Both the position numbers and the translations under genes were made by a program. This document shows positions 1 through 8,684 of a stretch of DNA of 34,744 nucleotides, one piece after another. The notes under the pieces were generated by a model. The model had not been told where the DNA came from, made no database searches, and saw only the letters and a list, made by a program, of their open reading frames with translations. Every line of letters starts with the position of its first letter. Within the stretch, counting starts at the first letter, position 1. Source of the DNA: an uncultured Massilia sp. (GTDB lineage Bacteria > Pseudomonadota > Gammaproteobacteria > Burkholderiales > Burkholderiaceae_D). The DNA lies in the NCBI GenBank assembly GCA_913777025.1, contig CAJYQM010000248.1, positions 1 to 34,744 of the forward strand, read 5' to 3'.

Positions 1-67
1 CTGCCAACTGCTCCTGGTGCGATTGAATGCCGGGACTGCTGAATCCAGCAATCATGTCGCCCAGCAT
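1..67 (-). CDS. Possible partial open frame at the left edge, function unknown
   Basis: Downstream of the helicase stop on the minus strand, one frame stays open to the window edge. Its first ATG is at 65-67 and it begins MLGDMIAGFSSPG. The same frame is also open further upstream, through 68-134 and into the end of the helicase gene, but with no obvious start there. I do not recognise the protein. It could be the start of another gene of the defence operon or chance open sequence. A 12-base direct repeat (CCAGGAGCAGTT on this strand) occurs at 6-17 and at 141-152, inside the end of the helicase gene, so a local duplication is also possible. Only 22 codons are visible after the ATG, so support is weak. 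Confidence 0.25.
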   Translation of the reverse strand, partial: MLGDMIAGFSSPGIQSHQEQLA

Positions 68-134
68 AGCCTTTGCACGAAACAAAGGCCAGCTACGGCG
101 AGGAATATGATCGCACGAAACTAAACAGCTATGC

Positions 135-1811
135 TCATTGAACTGCTCCTGGAGAAGGTGGGAGAGGAAAGTTGAATTCAGGCAGCTCTAGCTTGGCATC
201 ACCTTCTCGATTAAATAGATCAGCTTGATCTAATAACCATTCAAACATAAAGTGTCCTGCACCTCGGTCGGAGAACTGAACAATACGTTCAATCAAATCT
301 AGTTTCTCTACCTCGCCTGATATCGATTTTTGTAGATCAATTACTTCGGATATCCGACGAAGGTCACTCACAAAGTCCAGAACCACAACCTTATTTTTAT
401 TTGCAGATAGTCGTAATCCTCTTCCTAGCTGTTGAACGAAAATCCTCCGGCTATGCGTGACTCGCATGAAGGCCAGCATATCAACGTCAGGAACATCTAC
501 GCCTTCGTTAAAAATGTCTACAGTAGTTACGGCATTAATGGTACCTCTACGTAACGCCGCCATCGTCTTTTCTCGCTCCCGGGAGTCCATGTCGCCAGTG
601 ATAAAGGCCGAGTTGAATCCGAATAACCTCAGCATCGCCGAAAAAGTCCTTGCATGTTCAATGCCCGGGCAGAACACAAGCAAACTACGCCTTCCCTCTT
701 TATTGAACGTATCTGCAATCAACTTTGCCGCTTCCTCATCACGCGTTGGGATTAGCAGTTTAGTGTTAAGCTCCTTGATTGAGTACTCATTACGTGATTG
801 CTTTCTTACGAAATCCCAATCGATATTATCGGCAAGAAGGCGATAATCAGCTTCGCAAAGAAAACCTTGGCGAAGGCCTTCGTCAATACCAATTTTTGCT
901 ATCGGTTGTCCTAACATTGTATCAATATCAAACCGATCGCCTCGCCATGGGGTAGCAGTCGCCCCACCAATCATCGGAGGCGCAAGACGTTCTATTGCTC
1001 TTCTGAAACTATCTGATCCAATATGGTGCGCTTCATCGACCCAAACCAGACCAAACTGAGGAAGAATGTCTAAACGTGGTATTACACTCTGAACCGTAGC
1101 GAATGTAATACCGTCCCAAAATGTCGGGATTTCACCACCGATAAGTAAGTGCGTTGGAATATTTTTAGGAAGTTGTTGCCAAAATTCACGTTGCAACTGC
1201 TCCACTAATTCGCGCTTGTCTGCTAAAACTAATACACGGCCCGAATCAATAGCTCCATCTCTAAGTAATTGAGCAGTAGTTTCCGCCATCACTACGGTTT
1301 TACCTAGACCAGTGGCAAGTACTAGCTGGCCACGACCAGTTTCGCGAAGAGCTGCAACTAGTTTTGTAACACAATCGTCTTGATAGTCGCGAAGTTCACG
1401 TCGAGCTCGTGGATATTCAGGACTACGACGCATCATCTCAATAAGCGTGCCCGGCGGCAATGAATCAATTCGAATACCTAACCGGGCCCACCGATCAATT
1501 GCTGCGTTCATCGCAGGTCCAAAAGGCCGTGAGCTAGCGATAGCGAGCCGATCTGCTTCGTAAAATTGAGCAGCTTCTACAATTTCTTCGACCGCATGTG
1601 GATCTGGATAGCTATCGCTAGTAAATTTGCATTGAATAACCCATAGCTGCCCATTTTTTACGCCGAGAACATCCGCGCCACGATCACCGGACCCACCAAC
1701 AACACGGACATCTTCAAATGAATTCTGAACAAGTAACCGCGCGACATCACGTTCGAAAGCACGCCATGATCCATTTAATAGTCGGCGCGAGTCAAGAAAA
1801 TAACCCTCCAT
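135..1811 (-). CDS. Mrr-type restriction endonuclease fused to a DEAD/DEAH superfamily 2 helicase
   Basis: This 558-residue protein has two parts. Residues 15-120 form an Mrr-like PD-(D/E)XK nuclease: Glu20, then SGDRGAD with Asp47, then QCK at 60-62, so the catalytic set looks complete. Residues 139-500 form a superfamily 2 helicase: LRDYQ at 140-144, Walker A ATGLGKT at 166-172, DEAH at 259-262, TATP at 285-288, and motif VI QLGRGLR at 461-467. It is probably the DNA-translocating and cutting subunit of the system encoded with it. It is the last recognised gene of a leftward operon, and its ATG lies two bases past the stop of the ATPase gene, so translation is probably coupled. Base composition is far lower in GC than the chromosome to the right. 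The domain calls are secure; the target DNA and the role in restriction are inferred from the neighbours. Confidence 0.88.
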   Translation of the reverse strand: MEGYFLDSRRLLNGSWRAFERDVARLLVQNSFEDVRVVGGSGDRGADVLGVKNGQLWVIQCKFTSDSYPDPHAVEEIVEAAQFYEADRLAIASSRPFGPAMNAAIDRWARLGIRIDSLPPGTLIEMMRRSPEYPRARRELRDYQDDCVTKLVAALRETGRGQLVLATGLGKTVVMAETTAQLLRDGAIDSGRVLVLADKRELVEQLQREFWQQLPKNIPTHLLIGGEIPTFWDGITFATVQSVIPRLDILPQFGLVWVDEAHHIGSDSFRRAIERLAPPMIGGATATPWRGDRFDIDTMLGQPIAKIGIDEGLRQGFLCEADYRLLADNIDWDFVRKQSRNEYSIKELNTKLLIPTRDEEAAKLIADTFNKEGRRSLLVFCPGIEHARTFSAMLRLFGFNSAFITGDMDSREREKTMAALRRGTINAVTTVDIFNEGVDVPDVDMLAFMRVTHSRRIFVQQLGRGLRLSANKNKVVVLDFVSDLRRISEVIDLQKSISGEVEKLDLIERIVQFSDRGAGHFMFEWLLDQADLFNREGDAKLELPEFNFPLPPSPGAVQ

Positions 1812-1813
1812 CG

Positions 1814-4168
1814 CTAGACCACTCCGTCTGAATTTAAGAGCCTCACAGAAAGAGTGGCACGAATCAATTCGTCACGATCACATCGATCTAGATCTCGTGG
1901 GCTTTGAGTAGCTAGCCATACGGCGTCTGCTAAGTATGAGGTGTATCGCTCTAGCACTCTTTCTTTAGCCTCTTCATTAATTTTTTCATCACCGAATTCT
2001 ATGGAAGAATAGGGTTGTGCCCAATAGATTCCATCGAAAAACAGTTCTGGATTTTGCCGAACGAAATCACGAATATTAGGGGCTTCTGCATATGCTAAGA
2101 ACTCACCGGCATCAATAATTGATTGAATGCCACTGCTGCCGGTCGATGCAACTTTTCTTCTTATTTTGTCTTGAGCGGATTGTGACAATTCAGAAAACAG
2201 CGTTTTGAATAAGCTCAAATCTTCAAGCGTGCTAATAGATAGACCGATATCTTTAAGTGTCTTGTCGGCAAACGCGATGATGCTTTTTGGATCTAACTTC
2301 GCATCTTCAGCATACTCTCCACGGAAGTCAGCTAATATTGTCGAGAATACTGCTGAGTCAGGACTCACATCTTTTAGAAATTCATATGTTTTAAATGCGA
2401 GCTCGCACAAAATTGCGTCGTTTGGTGTCATAGTCACCGAACGAAACACAGGATGATCTGGATTGAAGAGGAATAAAAAAGTTCTCGTCCCTGGATCTTC
2501 GATTTTTAGCGTCCATGGCGCTTTTTTCGGCAGGTCAGGATCGTCCTGCTCAGCCATAAAGGCCTCGACAGTGAATTCAATTTTTAGTAACGGATGCTTG
2601 TAAACACGGGATAGCTCGTGCAATTTTTGCCGAACTAGAACAGCTGATGTACTAGTCGAAGACTCATCTATATCGGTTGCTGCAGTGCTGGTTGTTGGCG
2701 ATACAGGTGGGCTTGACGGTGTATCTTCGTCATCCAAGAAACCATCTGGCGCCGGAGGAGCTGCGGATCCCGGACCATTTGGTGTTGGCGTCGCTCCGAC
2801 GATGCCGCGATCTTCTTCCTCTACAAGTTCGTACCATTTCTCATCAGTTTGATATTCTGGATCTCCCTTATGGAAGAGGTCTGCCATCTCGATCGCTCGC
2901 TCATTATTTTTGACGGCAAGAATCCGCGACCATCTTCCGGTTTTTCCTTGCGGGCTACTCCGCCGAAATGCTTGAAAAAGGCGGTACAAAGGCGCAGTCT
3001 GCGGGATAAAACCCAGAGACTTAGCTTTTTGAGGCTGTAAGGGACCGTCGCCTCTAACTAGATTCACCATTTCCGCCCATGATGAGTCATCACGTTCAAA
3101 ACGGTCTTTTGTATAGCTGACACGGCAATGATCGAGGTGTATTTCACCAATAAAACGACCTCGATTCCGCTGGTCATCAATTGGGTACTCGCGTTCAGGT
3201 CGATCTCCGCCAGTCCAAATAAAGAGATCTTTATTTTGAACTTCTATAACACGGCCGTTCCGGATAATGTCGAGACCAAAGTCCTCTTCATGCATATAGC
3301 GTTGAAGACCTACCCAACCATGTAATCGTCTTTTAATTTCAATAGTCTTACATTCAGTGCTCCCAGTTGGACAACCTTGTGAGCCACTAAACGGAAGCAT
3401 GCAAGTCAAGCAGTATTGTCGTGATGGAAGCTCGAAATCGAAAGTTTCGACAGCTTGAACTGCTTTACCATCACTTCCTTGTACCCATCGATCGGGATTC
3501 CAATGGCATGGACGTTTTGCTTGAATATTCTGCGAATTTAACTGCAGGGCAAAGCTTGCGTCCTTCGATAGTAACAAAGGTGCATAAATCCGAGCTAATT
3601 GTCGGCGAATTTTGTTATGATTCGCACTTTTTGAGAAGTAGACGCGTTGATCAGCTTTTAACCGAAGAATCTTGATTTCGGTGCCATGCATTGATGAGTC
3701 ATGTTTAGGTCTCGTTAACCTAGGAGTTTGGTAGGTTCGCGTACGACGCAACTCATTTAAATCAATGCGAAGTCCAGTCCATTCTTTATCCCCTGCTCGC
3801 GTGGTATAGACTTCAGTCACCATGCCTAGCCGTGCTGTGGCAATATTAAATCCCATGCCAAAAAGACCAAGGTTATCAAGCGGGTTATTCCCGCTCCAAC
3901 CAGCACGAACAGCTCTTTCTAATTGCTCCAAGGTCATGCCGGGACCGTTGTCCCGTACGGTTACACTAGCGTCTTCCTTGTCCTGGGTTGGAAGCGAGAT
4001 TGCAACCATTGGTGATTCTACTTGATTGCCGTCCCTCCGCGCATTTATGAATGCATCAACACTATTGTCAATTAACTCTGCAAGACATTTCCATTGCTCA
4101 AGGTTGATTTCTCCGAGAATTTGAAGAACACGGGGGTCAGGAGTTAAGTCGAAATCAGTTGTGCTCAT
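1814..4168 (-). CDS. GHKL/MORC-type ATPase of a modification-restriction locus
   Basis: This 784-residue protein begins with a GHKL (Hsp90/MutL/MORC-type) ATPase domain: N box with Glu31, Asn35 and Asp38 in LAELIDNSVDA, DNGPGM at 73-78, and GLFGMG at 101-106. A transducer-like part follows at about 230-380, including GWVGLQRYMHEEDFGLDI, as in MORC-like bacterial ATPases. Cys253, Cys256, Cys266 and Cys273 form a CxxC-x9-C-x6-C cluster that could bind zinc. A Pro/Ser/Thr-rich linker at about 465-515 leads to a C-terminal domain of about 270 residues that I do not recognise. The gene sits between the methyltransferase (31-base gap) and the helicase-nuclease (two-base gap). MORC-like ATPases are known from predicted bacterial restriction systems, where they may clamp or remodel DNA. 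The domain call is firm; the exact role is inferred. Confidence 0.85.
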   Translation of the reverse strand: MSTTDFDLTPDPRVLQILGEINLEQWKCLAELIDNSVDAFINARRDGNQVESPMVAISLPTQDKEDASVTVRDNGPGMTLEQLERAVRAGWSGNNPLDNLGLFGMGFNIATARLGMVTEVYTTRAGDKEWTGLRIDLNELRRTRTYQTPRLTRPKHDSSMHGTEIKILRLKADQRVYFSKSANHNKIRRQLARIYAPLLLSKDASFALQLNSQNIQAKRPCHWNPDRWVQGSDGKAVQAVETFDFELPSRQYCLTCMLPFSGSQGCPTGSTECKTIEIKRRLHGWVGLQRYMHEEDFGLDIIRNGRVIEVQNKDLFIWTGGDRPEREYPIDDQRNRGRFIGEIHLDHCRVSYTKDRFERDDSSWAEMVNLVRGDGPLQPQKAKSLGFIPQTAPLYRLFQAFRRSSPQGKTGRWSRILAVKNNERAIEMADLFHKGDPEYQTDEKWYELVEEEDRGIVGATPTPNGPGSAAPPAPDGFLDDEDTPSSPPVSPTTSTAATDIDESSTSTSAVLVRQKLHELSRVYKHPLLKIEFTVEAFMAEQDDPDLPKKAPWTLKIEDPGTRTFLFLFNPDHPVFRSVTMTPNDAILCELAFKTYEFLKDVSPDSAVFSTILADFRGEYAEDAKLDPKSIIAFADKTLKDIGLSISTLEDLSLFKTLFSELSQSAQDKIRRKVASTGSSGIQSIIDAGEFLAYAEAPNIRDFVRQNPELFFDGIYWAQPYSSIEFGDEKINEEAKERVLERYTSYLADAVWLATQSPRDLDRCDRDELIRATLSVRLLNSDGVV

Positions 4169-4199
4169 GATGGACCTTAATCAATAAAGCAGTTAACAA

Positions 4200-5381
4200 T
4201 TATTGCTTTTTAGTATTATCGCATGCTGCTAAGCTGGCCGCGACCGAATTCGCAACTGCCTCAGCCAATATTACAGGTACAGCATTACCTAACTGACGCA
4301 TAGTTTGGCTCCAAGACCCTCGGAATTCGTATTCATCAGGGAAGGTTTGAAGTCGCGCTGCTTCACGAACAGTGAAATAGCGAACCGATCCGTCGTCTTT
4401 TACAAACATATTTTCGCCCCCCGGAACTCCGTGATATCCTGCTTTTAAGGTCTTTGCTGGTTCATCTAATAGACTACCCGTATGCCCAATATAGGTTCTG
4501 GCGCCCGGAGTATAAATATGATTAGCAATTGCTGAAGTTGGATATAATTCGGGATCAGGGAGATTAAATATTGCATCGCGCGTAGTTTGCCATCTCTCTG
4601 TTCTTAGAATTGACGGTTTTGCGCGCAGTCTTTCTATTTTCTTTAGAAGGCGATGTGGGATGGTTGGCCTATTTGCTCGACTAATTTGGTGTTTGTCCCA
4701 ATAGTCGCCATCAATCCACTTTGAAATTAATAGCTCATCTAAAGTATGAGTTTTTTCTGGAAATGACCAACGTGCTCCTATGTCGGATCTAAAACCCACA
4801 AAAAAGACCCTCTCACGTTTTTGAGGAACGCCATAATCTGCAGCGTTCAGTACATCAAAAAGTACATTGTAAGTCGAGGCGCCATTATTCGCTGAATGGT
4901 GCTGTTCTAGGCGAAAACAATGCTGGAGCCAATCTTCTTGTAAACGACGAGCTAATTCTGGATATTGAAGTTGGAGATGAATATAAGAAAAATATGATGC
5001 AAAGCTTTCGCGAGTAAGGCCTTTTACATTCTCGAAAATAAAAGCCTTTGGCATTAATTCTCTAATTGCACGGACAGCTTCAGGGAACATGTTTCGCTCA
5101 TCTTCATGAGCACGATGTTTTCCGCCCATCGAAAATGGTTGGCATGGCGGCCCTCCAGATACCACCGCAATATCAGTTTTAATATTGCTAAAGTTAAAGT
5201 TGCGCGCATCCATTTCATGCACTGGCCAACCATCTACGGTGTGCGTATGATGTCGCTGATTCTCACGAAAAGTTTCACAAGCATCATGGTCCCATTCAAT
5301 TACAGCCGCGTGTTGAAAGCCGGCTTTTGCCATACCAATTGCGAGTCCACCTGCGCCCGCAAAGAGTTCGACACTACGCAT
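4200..5381 (-). CDS. C5-cytosine DNA methyltransferase (Dcm family)
   Basis: The enzyme transfers a methyl group from S-adenosylmethionine to C5 of cytosine in a specific DNA site. Motif I is near the N-terminus (FAGAGGLAIG, about 7-16 counted from this ATG). The catalytic Pro-Cys motif GGPPCQPFS has its nucleophile Cys at about residue 80. ENV, QKRERV (about 187-192) and the C-terminal QLGNAVP (about 363-369) follow in the usual order. The target-recognition region, about 200-320, does not reveal the site. I chose the ATG at 5379-5381, which overlaps the vsr stop by eight bases and has AAGGAA seven bases upstream; a TTG one codon earlier (5382-5384) is also possible. Pairing with vsr is typical of 5-methylcytosine systems. 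The enzyme probably marks self DNA for the restriction proteins encoded downstream. Confidence 0.95.
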   Translation of the reverse strand: MRSVELFAGAGGLAIGMAKAGFQHAAVIEWDHDACETFRENQRHHTHTVDGWPVHEMDARNFNFSNIKTDIAVVSGGPPCQPFSMGGKHRAHEDERNMFPEAVRAIRELMPKAFIFENVKGLTRESFASYFSYIHLQLQYPELARRLQEDWLQHCFRLEQHHSANNGASTYNVLFDVLNAADYGVPQKRERVFFVGFRSDIGARWSFPEKTHTLDELLISKWIDGDYWDKHQISRANRPTIPHRLLKKIERLRAKPSILRTERWQTTRDAIFNLPDPELYPTSAIANHIYTPGARTYIGHTGSLLDEPAKTLKAGYHGVPGGENMFVKDDGSVRYFTVREAARLQTFPDEYEFRGSWSQTMRQLGNAVPVILAEAVANSVAASLAACDNTKKQ

Positions 5382-5781
5382 CAAGAAATTCCTTTATTTT
5401 ACTTTTGAGCTTTTCCGTTTCGTGAAGCTCACATTCCCAAATTGTTAAGATGTTCCATCCCATCTCTTGTAGCTCATCCGCATTTCTTTTGTCACGTTGT
5501 CGGTTCGCTTCGAGCTTTTTAGTCCAGAAGACAGTTCTAGATTTCGGTATTCTTGCCAGAACACATTCCGAATGACGGTGCCAAAAACATCCATGCACAA
5601 AAACCACTTTTTTTCTTTTTCGGAAGACTATGTCAGGTTTTCCAGGCAAATCTTTTGCATGAAGACGATATCGATAACCCATCGAATGAATAAGTTGTCG
5701 CACTTTCATTTCTGGCTTCGTATCACGGGATCGGACTCGACCCATAATCTCCGACCGACGAGCGGGGGTGACGCTGTCCAT
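5374..5781 (-). CDS. vsr: Very short patch repair endonuclease (Vsr)
   Basis: Vsr nicks DNA beside T:G mismatches that arise when 5-methylcytosine deaminates, starting repair that restores the methylated site. The 135-residue length is normal. The N-terminal signature TPARRSEIMGRVRSRDTKPE is present, as are PGKPDIVF with the metal-binding Asp50, HGCFWHRH at 63-70, and Asp97. Cys65, His70, Cys73 and Cys117 match the structural zinc site of the E. coli enzyme. It is the first gene of the leftward island operon. A promoter lies just upstream, and its 3' end overlaps the methyltransferase start. Its specificity should follow that of the partner methyltransferase. Confidence 0.95.
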   Translation of the reverse strand: MDSVTPARRSEIMGRVRSRDTKPEMKVRQLIHSMGYRYRLHAKDLPGKPDIVFRKRKKVVFVHGCFWHRHSECVLARIPKSRTVFWTKKLEANRQRDKRNADELQEMGWNILTIWECELHETEKLKSKIKEFLDA

Positions 5782-5810
5782 ACGTTACTCTATTGGCTAG
5801 GTGTCAGACT

Positions 5811-5840
5811 ATTTTACAGGAGGTGCTTTTTTGTTGTCAG
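5811..5840 (-). promoter_or_regulatory. Probable sigma-70 promoter of the vsr-methyltransferase-ATPase-helicase operon
   Basis: On the minus strand, CTGACA (5835-5840) and TAAAAT (5811-5816) are separated by 18 bases, each one mismatch from the sigma-70 consensus. Transcription would start near 5803, giving an untranslated leader of about 20 bases before the vsr ATG at 5779-5781. It is the only good promoter seen for the four-gene operon. The call comes from inspection only. Confidence 0.6.
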
Positions 5841-6047
5841 CTATGAGTTTGATGCGCAAAAAATTGTTGGATGATTAAGACAATATTTGAGGCGATAGTT
5901 GACGACAAGTGCGGAATTGGTTTCGGAAAATTTATGATTCCTCTGGGGGCTGCATCTTCGTCTGGATTTCGAGTGATACTAGGCATGAGTGAGAAGAATA
6001 CGAATTCGCAGCTGTATTGCATAGCGAATATGCGATATCGATAAACA
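5841..6047. other. Island/chromosome boundary spacer with no gene recognised
   Basis: This stretch lies between the vsr promoter and the gyrB terminator. It has only short open frames without convincing starts. AGGAGGTG at 5819-5826 precedes a run of codons that stops after about 16, so it is not a credible gene. No tRNA, integrase or clear attachment-site repeat is visible. The low GC of the island continues here, so the right junction of the acquired segment probably lies in this spacer or in the 3' end of gyrB. Confidence 0.4.
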
Positions 6048-6075
6048 AAACGCCAACCGATATCGGTTGGCGTTT
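6048..6075 (-). terminator. Rho-independent terminator of gyrB with a perfect palindromic stem
   Basis: The 28 bases form a perfect palindrome (arms AAACGCCAACCGAT and its complement) 35 bases past the gyrB stop. On the minus strand the stem is followed by a T-rich run, TTTTGTTTAT, as expected for intrinsic termination of leftward gyrB transcription. On the plus strand the tract after the stem is weaker. It should insulate the defence operon from gyrB read-through. Confidence 0.85.
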
Positions 6076-6110
6076 CAAGGTATTGCGGTTTAAAGGAAGA
6101 GTATAGAGCT

Positions 6111-8684
<2,574 letters not shown>

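What the first reader, a model, noticed from the sequence alone, without database searches (positions are those of the whole stretch)
1..5850. Four-gene modification-restriction operon built on a MORC-like ATPase and an Mrr-helicase fusion
Seen: vsr, a C5-cytosine methyltransferase, a GHKL/MORC-like ATPase and an Mrr-nuclease/superfamily 2 helicase fusion, packed with overlaps of 8 bases and gaps of 31 and 2 bases behind one promoter. No classical type II restriction enzyme is present. Known: MORC-like ATPases were predicted in bacterial restriction systems by Iyer, Abhiman and Aravind (2008), with various partners. Inference: the methyltransferase marks self DNA, Vsr repairs deaminated sites, and the ATPase plus helicase-nuclease attack unmarked DNA in an ATP-driven way, possibly as a two-ATPase machine. 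The exact set may be undescribed experimentally.
Basis: partly seen in the sequence, partly recalled or inferred. Interest (0 to 1): 0.8.

Follow-up and report, generated by a model that had tools for sequence, protein, structure and literature searches.

The report
MORC-ATPase restriction system, fifth gene broken
A bacterial DNA-defence locus that pairs a protective DNA-marking enzyme with a relative of our own MORC chromatin ATPases and a DNA-cutting motor; relatives show a fifth, undescribed gene that belongs to it and is interrupted here by a jumping element.

Summary
The four genes are there as described: vsr, C5-methyltransferase, MORC-type GHKL ATPase, Mrr-nuclease/SF2-helicase fusion. 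The type is not new: Iyer, Abhiman and Aravind predicted it in 2008; seven library searches listed no experimental test. (1) The set is incomplete: a fifth gene of about 180 codons ("hyp5") follows the helicase in 70 of 84 related loci, in 52 with its start overlapping the helicase stop. It passes no family cut-off tested; its confident model faintly resembles PD-(D/E)xK nucleases, catalytic state unclear. (2) The methyltransferase is of the M.Eco29kI family (site CCGCGG); 37 of 84 relatives also carry an Eco29kI-like enzyme. (3) Here hyp5 closes after five codons at the end of an IS481-type element, and no other copy was found, so restriction is probably impaired. MORC, helicase and hyp5 diverge together (r 0.94-0.97), less so with Vsr and methyltransferase (0.68-0.79). 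Best reading: an ATP-dependent restriction module joined to an exchangeable methylation module. New variant of a predicted kind.

The parts
5374..5781 (-). vsr: very short patch repair endonuclease, 135 aa
   Evidence: Pfam Vsr 1.8e-31, TIGR00632 3.2e-45 above cut-off; Asp50, Trp67, His68 invariant in 66 of 66 aligned, His63 in 37 of 66
4200..5381 (-). C5-cytosine methyltransferase, M.Eco29kI family, predicted site CCGCGG
   Evidence: DNA_methylase 9.1e-63; 51% identity over 94% to the pECO29 methyltransferase, target-recognition region 43%; Cys80 and Glu117 invariant in 80 of 80
1814..4168 (-). MORC-type GHKL ATPase, 784 aa: ATPase plus S5 domain with a cysteine-rich insert, then a C-terminal region of untested fold
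   Evidence: HATPase_c_3 3.8e-14; model pLDDT 86.8, MORC3 first among PDB matches; Lys354 and eight GHKL positions in 83 of 83
135..1811 (-). Mrr-type nuclease fused to an SF2 helicase, 558 aa
   Evidence: Mrr_cat 8e-12, ResIII 2.2e-23; D43, D47, Q60, K62, K171, D259, E260, H262, R464, R467 in 79-81 of 81
121..138 (-). start of the fifth gene (hyp5): ATG overlapping the helicase stop, five codons, then a stop
   Evidence: sequence; homology to L024 and L006 ends at 134 and 133; intact in L006 and L024; start overlaps helicase stop in 52 of 70 loci
1..127 (.). end of an IS481-family insertion sequence of about 1.1 kb; it also ends the contig, so the rest is not seen in this genome
   Evidence: identical 127 bases start contig C153; found in 22 of 61 genus genomes, many matches ending at base 127; full element in G467, 96% identical here, with IS481 transposase 2.2e-74
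6111..8615 (-). gyrB, upstream neighbour; not part of the system
   Evidence: NF011501 and TIGR01059 above cut-off

Best explanation
This is a MORC-type restriction-modification system of five genes. The methyltransferase marks CCGCGG (or a close variant) in self DNA, and Vsr repairs the T:G mismatches left when the marked cytosines deaminate. MORC ATPase, Mrr-helicase and hyp5 form a separate ATP-dependent restriction module: MORC clamps DNA as its eukaryotic relatives do, hyp5 and/or the MORC C-terminal region helps find unmarked sites or bridges the partners, and the helicase moves along the DNA and cuts it with its Mrr domain. In this genome an IS481-type element interrupts hyp5 at its start, so the restriction half is probably dead or impaired and the locus now most likely acts as a methylation-plus-Vsr module. 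Shown here: the genes, conserved active sites, the conserved five-gene set, two modules that diverge separately, the interruption. Inferred: the site, the clamp-translocate-cut mechanism, the role of hyp5, the loss of restriction.
For: Five-gene set: of 84 loci, 82 have the helicase after MORC, 70 hyp5 after the helicase, 81 a C5-methyltransferase, 66 Vsr. hyp5 was not seen outside this set: in 398 sampled genomes of the phylum its one match sits beside the only full-length MORC besides the window's (only the best few candidates per genome were scored), and its 3 plasmid matches lie in loci with MORC and helicase. Distances of MORC, helicase/nuclease and hyp5 correlate at 0.94-0.97, but with methyltransferase and Vsr only at 0.68-0.79 (58 loci); in a set thinned to 35 loci, 0.89-0.91 against 0.50-0.62 for the pairs printed. 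Active sites mostly intact. Site: M.Eco29kI family including the recognition region; R.Eco29kI site CCGCGG (PMC1952068, passages). Four of the 18 loci without detected Vsr carry a MutY-like glycosylase, which fits repair of deaminated methylcytosine. A tested precedent for methyltransferase plus ATP-driven helicase restriction is CglI/NgoAVII (PMC4267653, abstract and passages). Interruption; no hyp5 found elsewhere in the genome. Foreign origin: operon GC 45% against 66%.
Against: No activity is known to me for any member. 37 of 84 relatives carry an Eco29kI-like nuclease, so in those the MORC module cannot be simply the missing restriction enzyme. Nine loci with over 2 kb of following sequence lack a recognisable hyp5, so it is not universal. 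Support for hyp5 as specificity factor is weak: partial correlation with the methyltransferase recognition region 0.36 against 0.24-0.29 for the other parts; bootstrap separates it from the MORC parts (P about 0.02) but not from the Mrr domain (P 0.11), and in the thinned set Mrr is equal (0.27 against 0.29). A nuclease role of hyp5 is not excluded: 36 of 64 have a D-(10)-(D/E)xK pattern. CCGCGG is not depleted in the 28.6 kb outside the operon: 31 seen, 31.5 expected. Methyltransferases up to 58.7% identical, of sites unknown to me, score above M.Eco29kI. The genome is 83.5% complete, so hyp5 fragments could be missing.
Confidence: 0.6

Rival explanations
1. The MORC-helicase-hyp5 triad is an accessory of ordinary type II restriction: an Eco29kI-like enzyme makes the cut and the triad degrades or unwinds the cut DNA, or controls the enzyme.
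For: Eco29kI-like genes in 37 of 84 loci, in many of them between methyltransferase and MORC; an MvaI/BcnI enzyme follows the helicase in L065.
Against: 47 of 84 loci have no detected Eco29kI-like gene (some are on short contigs), including the two nearest relatives L006 and L024, and the triad has its own Mrr nuclease with D43, D47, Q60 and K62 kept in 79-80 of 81.
Confidence: 0.2
2. The triad is a modification-dependent (type IV-like) nuclease that attacks foreign methylated DNA.
For: The helicase scores best against PADLOC's type IV methyl-directed enzymes (2.6e-44), and Mrr domains are classically modification-dependent (recalled).
Against: 81 of 84 loci also carry a C5-methyltransferase, which would make the host its own target unless the marks differ; the match covers only the helicase core (residues 144-486).
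Confidence: 0.1
3. The MORC is a dedicated MutL for Vsr: the operon is a mismatch-repair device for deaminated methylcytosine, not restriction.
For: MORC resembles MutL, and Vsr is linked to MutL in repair (Iyer 2008); Vsr in 66 of 84 loci.
Against: With helicase distance held constant, Vsr follows the methyltransferase (0.57-0.58) and not MORC (0.01-0.08); the raw values differ little (0.80 against 0.73-0.75). Vsr is undetected in 18 loci, most of which keep the helicase-nuclease.
Confidence: 0.06

Closest known systems
MORC restriction-modification operons, type 1 (Iyer, Abhiman and Aravind 2008, PMC2292703)
   Same: MORC ATPase beside an SF2 helicase fused to a restriction-fold nuclease, with cytosine methyltransferase and Vsr; horizontally mobile
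   Different: The text read does not mention a fifth small gene after the helicase, the Eco29kI/CCGCGG link or module exchange; its Figure 2 was not available to me, and part 4 of the section was not read
Eco29kI restriction-modification system (pECO29, CCGCGG)
   Same: Methyltransferase of the same family, about 51% identical
   Different: Two annotated genes only; GIY-YIG nuclease present; no MORC, helicase or hyp5 annotated
CglI and NgoAVII (PMC4267653)
   Same: C5-methyltransferase plus SF2 ATPase that drives restriction; ATP hydrolysis needed for cutting
   Different: PLD nuclease with B3 domain on a separate protein and a Z1 domain in the ATPase; neither MORC nor Mrr fusion in the passages read
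Eukaryotic MORC2/3/4 and SMCHD1
   Same: ATPase-S5 architecture; model aligns to MORC3 at Z 21.7, rmsd 3.8 over 292 residues; by sequence profile only MORC3 and MORC4 are hit
   Different: The MORC rows cover model residues 9 to 446 at most; Hsp90-family structures score nearly as high (TRAP1 Z 20.3); the C-terminal region was not compared on its own
MZA system (MzaB)
   Same: A GHKL ATPase in a defence system
   Different: Only a faint match (0.0046; 23.9 bits against a cut-off of 850)

Membership tests
MORC family (Iyer 2008) | GHKL ATP-binding motifs | tested here: met
   E31, N35, D73, G77, G101, G104, G106, G162 in 83 of 83 aligned; G75 in 78, T163 in 82
MORC family (Iyer 2008) | S5 domain with conserved basic residue | tested here: met
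   Lys354 in 83 of 83; fold match to MORC ATPase-S5 structures. That Lys354 is the functional one is my reading
MORC family (Iyer 2008) | GhXhhpXXRhl motif | tested here: met
   Window protein fits strictly (GLDIIRNGRVI); 9 of 83 strictly, 82 of 83 only if K or T is allowed at the tenth place
MORC R-M operon, type 1 | Rad25-like SF2 helicase fused to a restriction-fold nuclease | tested here: met
   Mrr_cat plus ResIII/Helicase_C; XPB/RAD25 structures at 1e-25 to 2e-32, though a 'putative helicase' (4e-47) and RadD (5e-42) score better
MORC R-M operon, type 1 | cytosine methyltransferase and Vsr in the operon | tested here: met
Eco29kI R-M system | methyltransferase of the CCGCGG family | tested here: met
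   specificity itself is inferred
Eco29kI R-M system | GIY-YIG restriction enzyme | tested here: not met
   none in window with four seeds; none in the genome, but the control genomes rang nowhere either
Complete five-gene system | intact hyp5 | tested here: not met
   closes after five codons; no other copy found
PD-(D/E)xK nucleases (hyp5) | fold | tested here: inconclusive
   EndoMS Z 7.2, rmsd 2.8 over 89 residues, nucleases and unrelated folds below; Foldseek best E 0.12
PD-(D/E)xK nucleases (hyp5) | conserved D...(D/E)xK active site | tested here: inconclusive
   D111 with (D/E)122-x-K124 in 36 of 64, missing in 28; the second part lies at a helix start, after the strand where I would expect it
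Named defence systems of PADLOC | significant match of MORC or hyp5 | tested here: not met
   MORC: MzaB at 0.002-0.005 in 2 of 4 tested, none in 2; hyp5: none in 3 tested; PADLOC dates from 2023. Methyltransferase, Vsr and helicase match its generic restriction models
Working restriction system | protection from phage and methylation-sensitive cutting | not testable with these tools
   needs the bench

The most novel reading that the evidence does not exclude
hyp5 is a nuclease-like protein, degenerate in part of the family, that serves as the target-recognition or bridging subunit of a new kind of restriction enzyme, in which a MORC clamp loads a helicase-nuclease onto unmethylated CCGCGG DNA: the ancestral job from which eukaryotic MORC silencing of foreign DNA arose.
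Probability: 0.2. Interest if true: 0.85.

Novelty: new variant of a known kind. Interest (0 to 1): 0.55.

Why it matters
What bacterial MORC ATPases do has, as far as the papers searched show, stayed a prediction since 2008, although they are the proposed ancestors of proteins that silence foreign DNA in plants and animals. This locus family gives a compact, testable unit: five genes, a predicted site (CCGCGG), a natural interruption of one gene (this genome), and two modules that diverge separately. It also adds an undescribed gene family that anyone cloning the four-gene set would leave out, and so might wrongly find inactive.

Tried and rejected
hyp5 start read from the window end: a 49-residue frame from the window's first bases was aligned to hyp5 and did not match; DNA comparison then showed that homology simply stops at 133/134.

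hyp5 as specificity subunit: co-variation with the methyltransferase recognition region is only slightly above that of the other parts. Recognition types could not be separated cleanly: at 40% identity all 58 join in one cluster, at 50% in two large ones and seven singles.

hyp5 as nuclease: I first took the active site as lost from the column counts; a recount showed a D-(10)-(D/E)xK pattern in 36 of 64, so this is open, not rejected. Weak Pfam RCC1 and PDB matches of hyp5 judged chance. The MORC C-terminal region (520-784) was folded only as part of the whole and is untested as a fold.

CCGCGG depletion as a sign of restriction: none in 28.6 kb of the window; not tried genome-wide.

J. lividum plasmid matches to the window end had no transposase I could name; the element was identified from genus genomes instead.

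Counts: of 6 plasmid hits 4 were opened (H1-H4); of 259 genome relatives the tool kept the best 80. L009 and L047, and L017 and L049, give identical gene coordinates and are probably the same sequence, so counts of 84 are not all independent. 26 of 84 loci were left out of the distance analysis (not all five genes, or fragments too short); the window was left out too, having no hyp5. Loci were found through MORC, so MORC presence is by construction. Methyltransferase and Vsr were sought with the window's own proteins only (phmmer, 1e-5), so divergent ones may be missed; some lie up to 6.8 and 6.4 kb from MORC, and the three loci without methyltransferase are on contigs of 6.3-8.3 kb. Eco29kI-like counts use phmmer at 1e-5; of 8 checked in Pfam, 5 pass its cut-off and 3 fall below it. 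Plain tblastn missed the divergent hyp5 of the Rhodococcus plasmid L005.
Full report
What is there. On the minus strand, reading away from gyrB, lie vsr (5781-5374), a C5-methyltransferase (5381-4200), a MORC-type ATPase (4168-1814) and an Mrr-helicase fusion (1811-135). Pfam confirms each. The operon has 45% GC against 66% for the window beyond it, so it was probably acquired from elsewhere; none of 36 sampled genomes of the same genus has the MORC (one weak partial match only). Position 1 is the start of contig C248.

The set is five genes, not four. A search of public genomes with an alignment of five MORC proteins found 259 relatives, of which the tool kept 80; with four plasmid loci this gives 84. 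In these, 82 have the helicase fusion after MORC, 70 have a small gene (hyp5, about 180 codons) after the helicase, 81 a C5-methyltransferase and 66 Vsr. Of the 14 without hyp5, five end within 150 bases of the helicase or MORC; nine have more than 2 kb and lack a recognisable one, even at a loose threshold. In 52 of 70 the hyp5 start overlaps the helicase stop. The nearest relatives, Herminiimonas L006 (78% in MORC) and Paraburkholderia hiiakae L024 (80%), have exactly vsr-methyltransferase-MORC-helicase-hyp5.

hyp5 is interrupted here. Window DNA matches L024 down to base 134, just inside the overlapping start of hyp5, and then stops matching; the frame closes after five codons. Bases 1-127 are identical to the start of contig C153, occur in 22 of 61 genomes of the genus with many matches ending at base 127, and match the end of a 1.1-kb element that carries an IS481-family transposase in genome G467. 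The rest of the element is not seen in this genome, because the contig ends. No hyp5 was found elsewhere in this 83.5%-complete genome with a single relative or with the profile, a profile that does find hyp5 in genome G190.

What hyp5 is. No Pfam family above its cut-off in 6 proteins tested, no NCBIfam in 2, no PADLOC in 3. The model is confident (pLDDT 94.6): an N-terminal helical part, then an alpha/beta part. Foldseek finds nothing significant (best E 0.12); VIA-align puts the nuclease EndoMS first (Z 7.2) with more nucleases among the next rows (CdiA-CT toxin, Can2, Shedu, EcoT38I; that these share the PD-(D/E)xK fold is recalled), mixed further down with unrelated enzymes, a level that may mean only a common arrangement. 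The invariant residues are W26, W41, G48, K65, K70 and P104, with Y38, L51, R61, D66, Y72, R74, K103 and W117 nearly so. A D-(10)-(D/E)xK pattern (D111, D/E122, K124) is present in 36 of 64 and missing in 28, at a place unusual for the fold. So hyp5 may be a nuclease, a degenerate one, or a DNA-contacting or bridging subunit; I lean to the last because its most conserved residues lie elsewhere (inference). It was not seen apart from MORC: one of 398 genomes of the phylum, beside the only full-length MORC besides the window's, and three plasmids, all in loci with MORC and helicase. On this sample the system is rare.

Two modules. Over 58 loci with all five genes, distances of MORC, Mrr, helicase and hyp5 correlate at 0.94-0.97; methyltransferase and Vsr correlate with them at 0.68-0.79 and with each other at 0.80. 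A set thinned to 35 loci gives the same picture. Vsr and methyltransferase also stand at varying places and strands around the fixed triad. hyp5 tracks the methyltransferase recognition region slightly better than MORC does, but not clearly better than the Mrr domain does, so a specificity role is only hinted at.

Predicted site. The methyltransferase is about 51% identical over 94% of its length to that of pECO29 and 43% in the recognition region, while other C5 enzymes of known structure match only in core segments. R.Eco29kI recognises CCGCGG (PMC1952068, passages read). Of 79 aligned relatives, 74 have a recognition region that aligns to that of M.Eco29kI, at 26-48% identity, so a shared site is likely for the closer ones only; five distant ones (L055, L058, L065, L067, L077) do not align there, and none of these has hyp5, though they are also distant MORCs and L067 ends too early to tell. 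An Eco29kI-like nuclease lies in 37 of 84 loci, but not in L006 or L024 nor in the window.

Active sites. MORC ATP motifs, the S5 lysine, Walker and DExH motifs, Mrr D-D-QxK, methyltransferase Cys/Glu and Vsr Asp50/His68 are conserved; Vsr His63 (37 of 66) and a candidate Mrr Glu20 (52 of 81) are not. The MORC model aligns best to MORC3 (Z 21.7), with TRAP1/Hsp90 close behind (20.3); by sequence profile only MORC3 and MORC4 structures are hit.

Known work. Iyer and co-workers described such operons from sequence: Rad25-like helicase fused to a nuclease, MORC, cytosine methyltransferase, Vsr (PMC2292703, three of four parts of the main text read; figures not seen). A 2021 paper on related paraMORC loci (PMC8011034, passages) calls the biochemistry of bacterial MORCs poorly understood. 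Seven library searches (listings, one of them on Eco29kI) showed no experimental study of a prokaryotic MORC restriction system; subscription papers are mostly not held. CglI/NgoAVII is the nearest tested mechanism I found (PMC4267653, abstract and passages).

Verdict. The value lies in the fifth gene, the two-module structure and the predicted site, which together make the old MORC question directly testable.

Noticed in passing
window 1-6110; L137, L139, L142, L144, L145, L149, L151, L152, L153: The 3' side of gyrB may be a defence hotspot in this genus: from 20 relatives' 8-kb downstream stretches I picked 10 ORFs of 9 genomes that looked like defence genes, and 9 of the 10 matched MrcB_N, HNH, C5-methyltransferase or a PLD-helicase.
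   Followed up: partly
L051:5835-6599, L055:12959-13666, L065:7199-7969, L077:7223-7990: Four distant loci without detected Vsr carry a MutY-like DNA glycosylase (below the family cut-off), apparently a substitute for Vsr in repairing deaminated methylcytosine (L065 by similarity only).
   Followed up: partly
L065:11915-12718: An MvaI/BcnI-type restriction enzyme (1.3e-49) occupies the place of hyp5 after the helicase.
   Followed up: no
L002:10470-11549 and 26 further loci: A PIN-domain protein (PIN_8 in the 2 tested) occurs in 27 of 84 loci, right after hyp5 in the positions listed: a possible sixth, RNase-like member.
   Followed up: no
L064:12608-14011, L077:11982-13544: A Streptomyces and a Caldilineaceae locus carry proteins with sigma-70 regions next to the triad, recalling MzaA (0.068).
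   Followed up: no
L031:7178-7897 and 12 further loci: A divergent gene of about 240 codons lies upstream of MORC in 13 alphaproteobacterial loci; the one tested has no Pfam match.
   Followed up: no
window MORC residues 253-273: A cysteine cluster (C253, C256, C266, each in 81 of 83) lies inside the S5 region, possibly a zinc ribbon.
   Followed up: no
window:1814-4168: The MORC protein also gives a faint match to the BbrUII/HgiDII restriction enzyme family (4.2e-5, 22 bits against a cut-off of 550), a lead to GHKL domains inside type II enzymes.
   Followed up: no
L096:1-918: A second copy of the IS481-type element end lies beside an RHS-like reading frame on contig C153; the gene label is by eye.
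   Followed up: no
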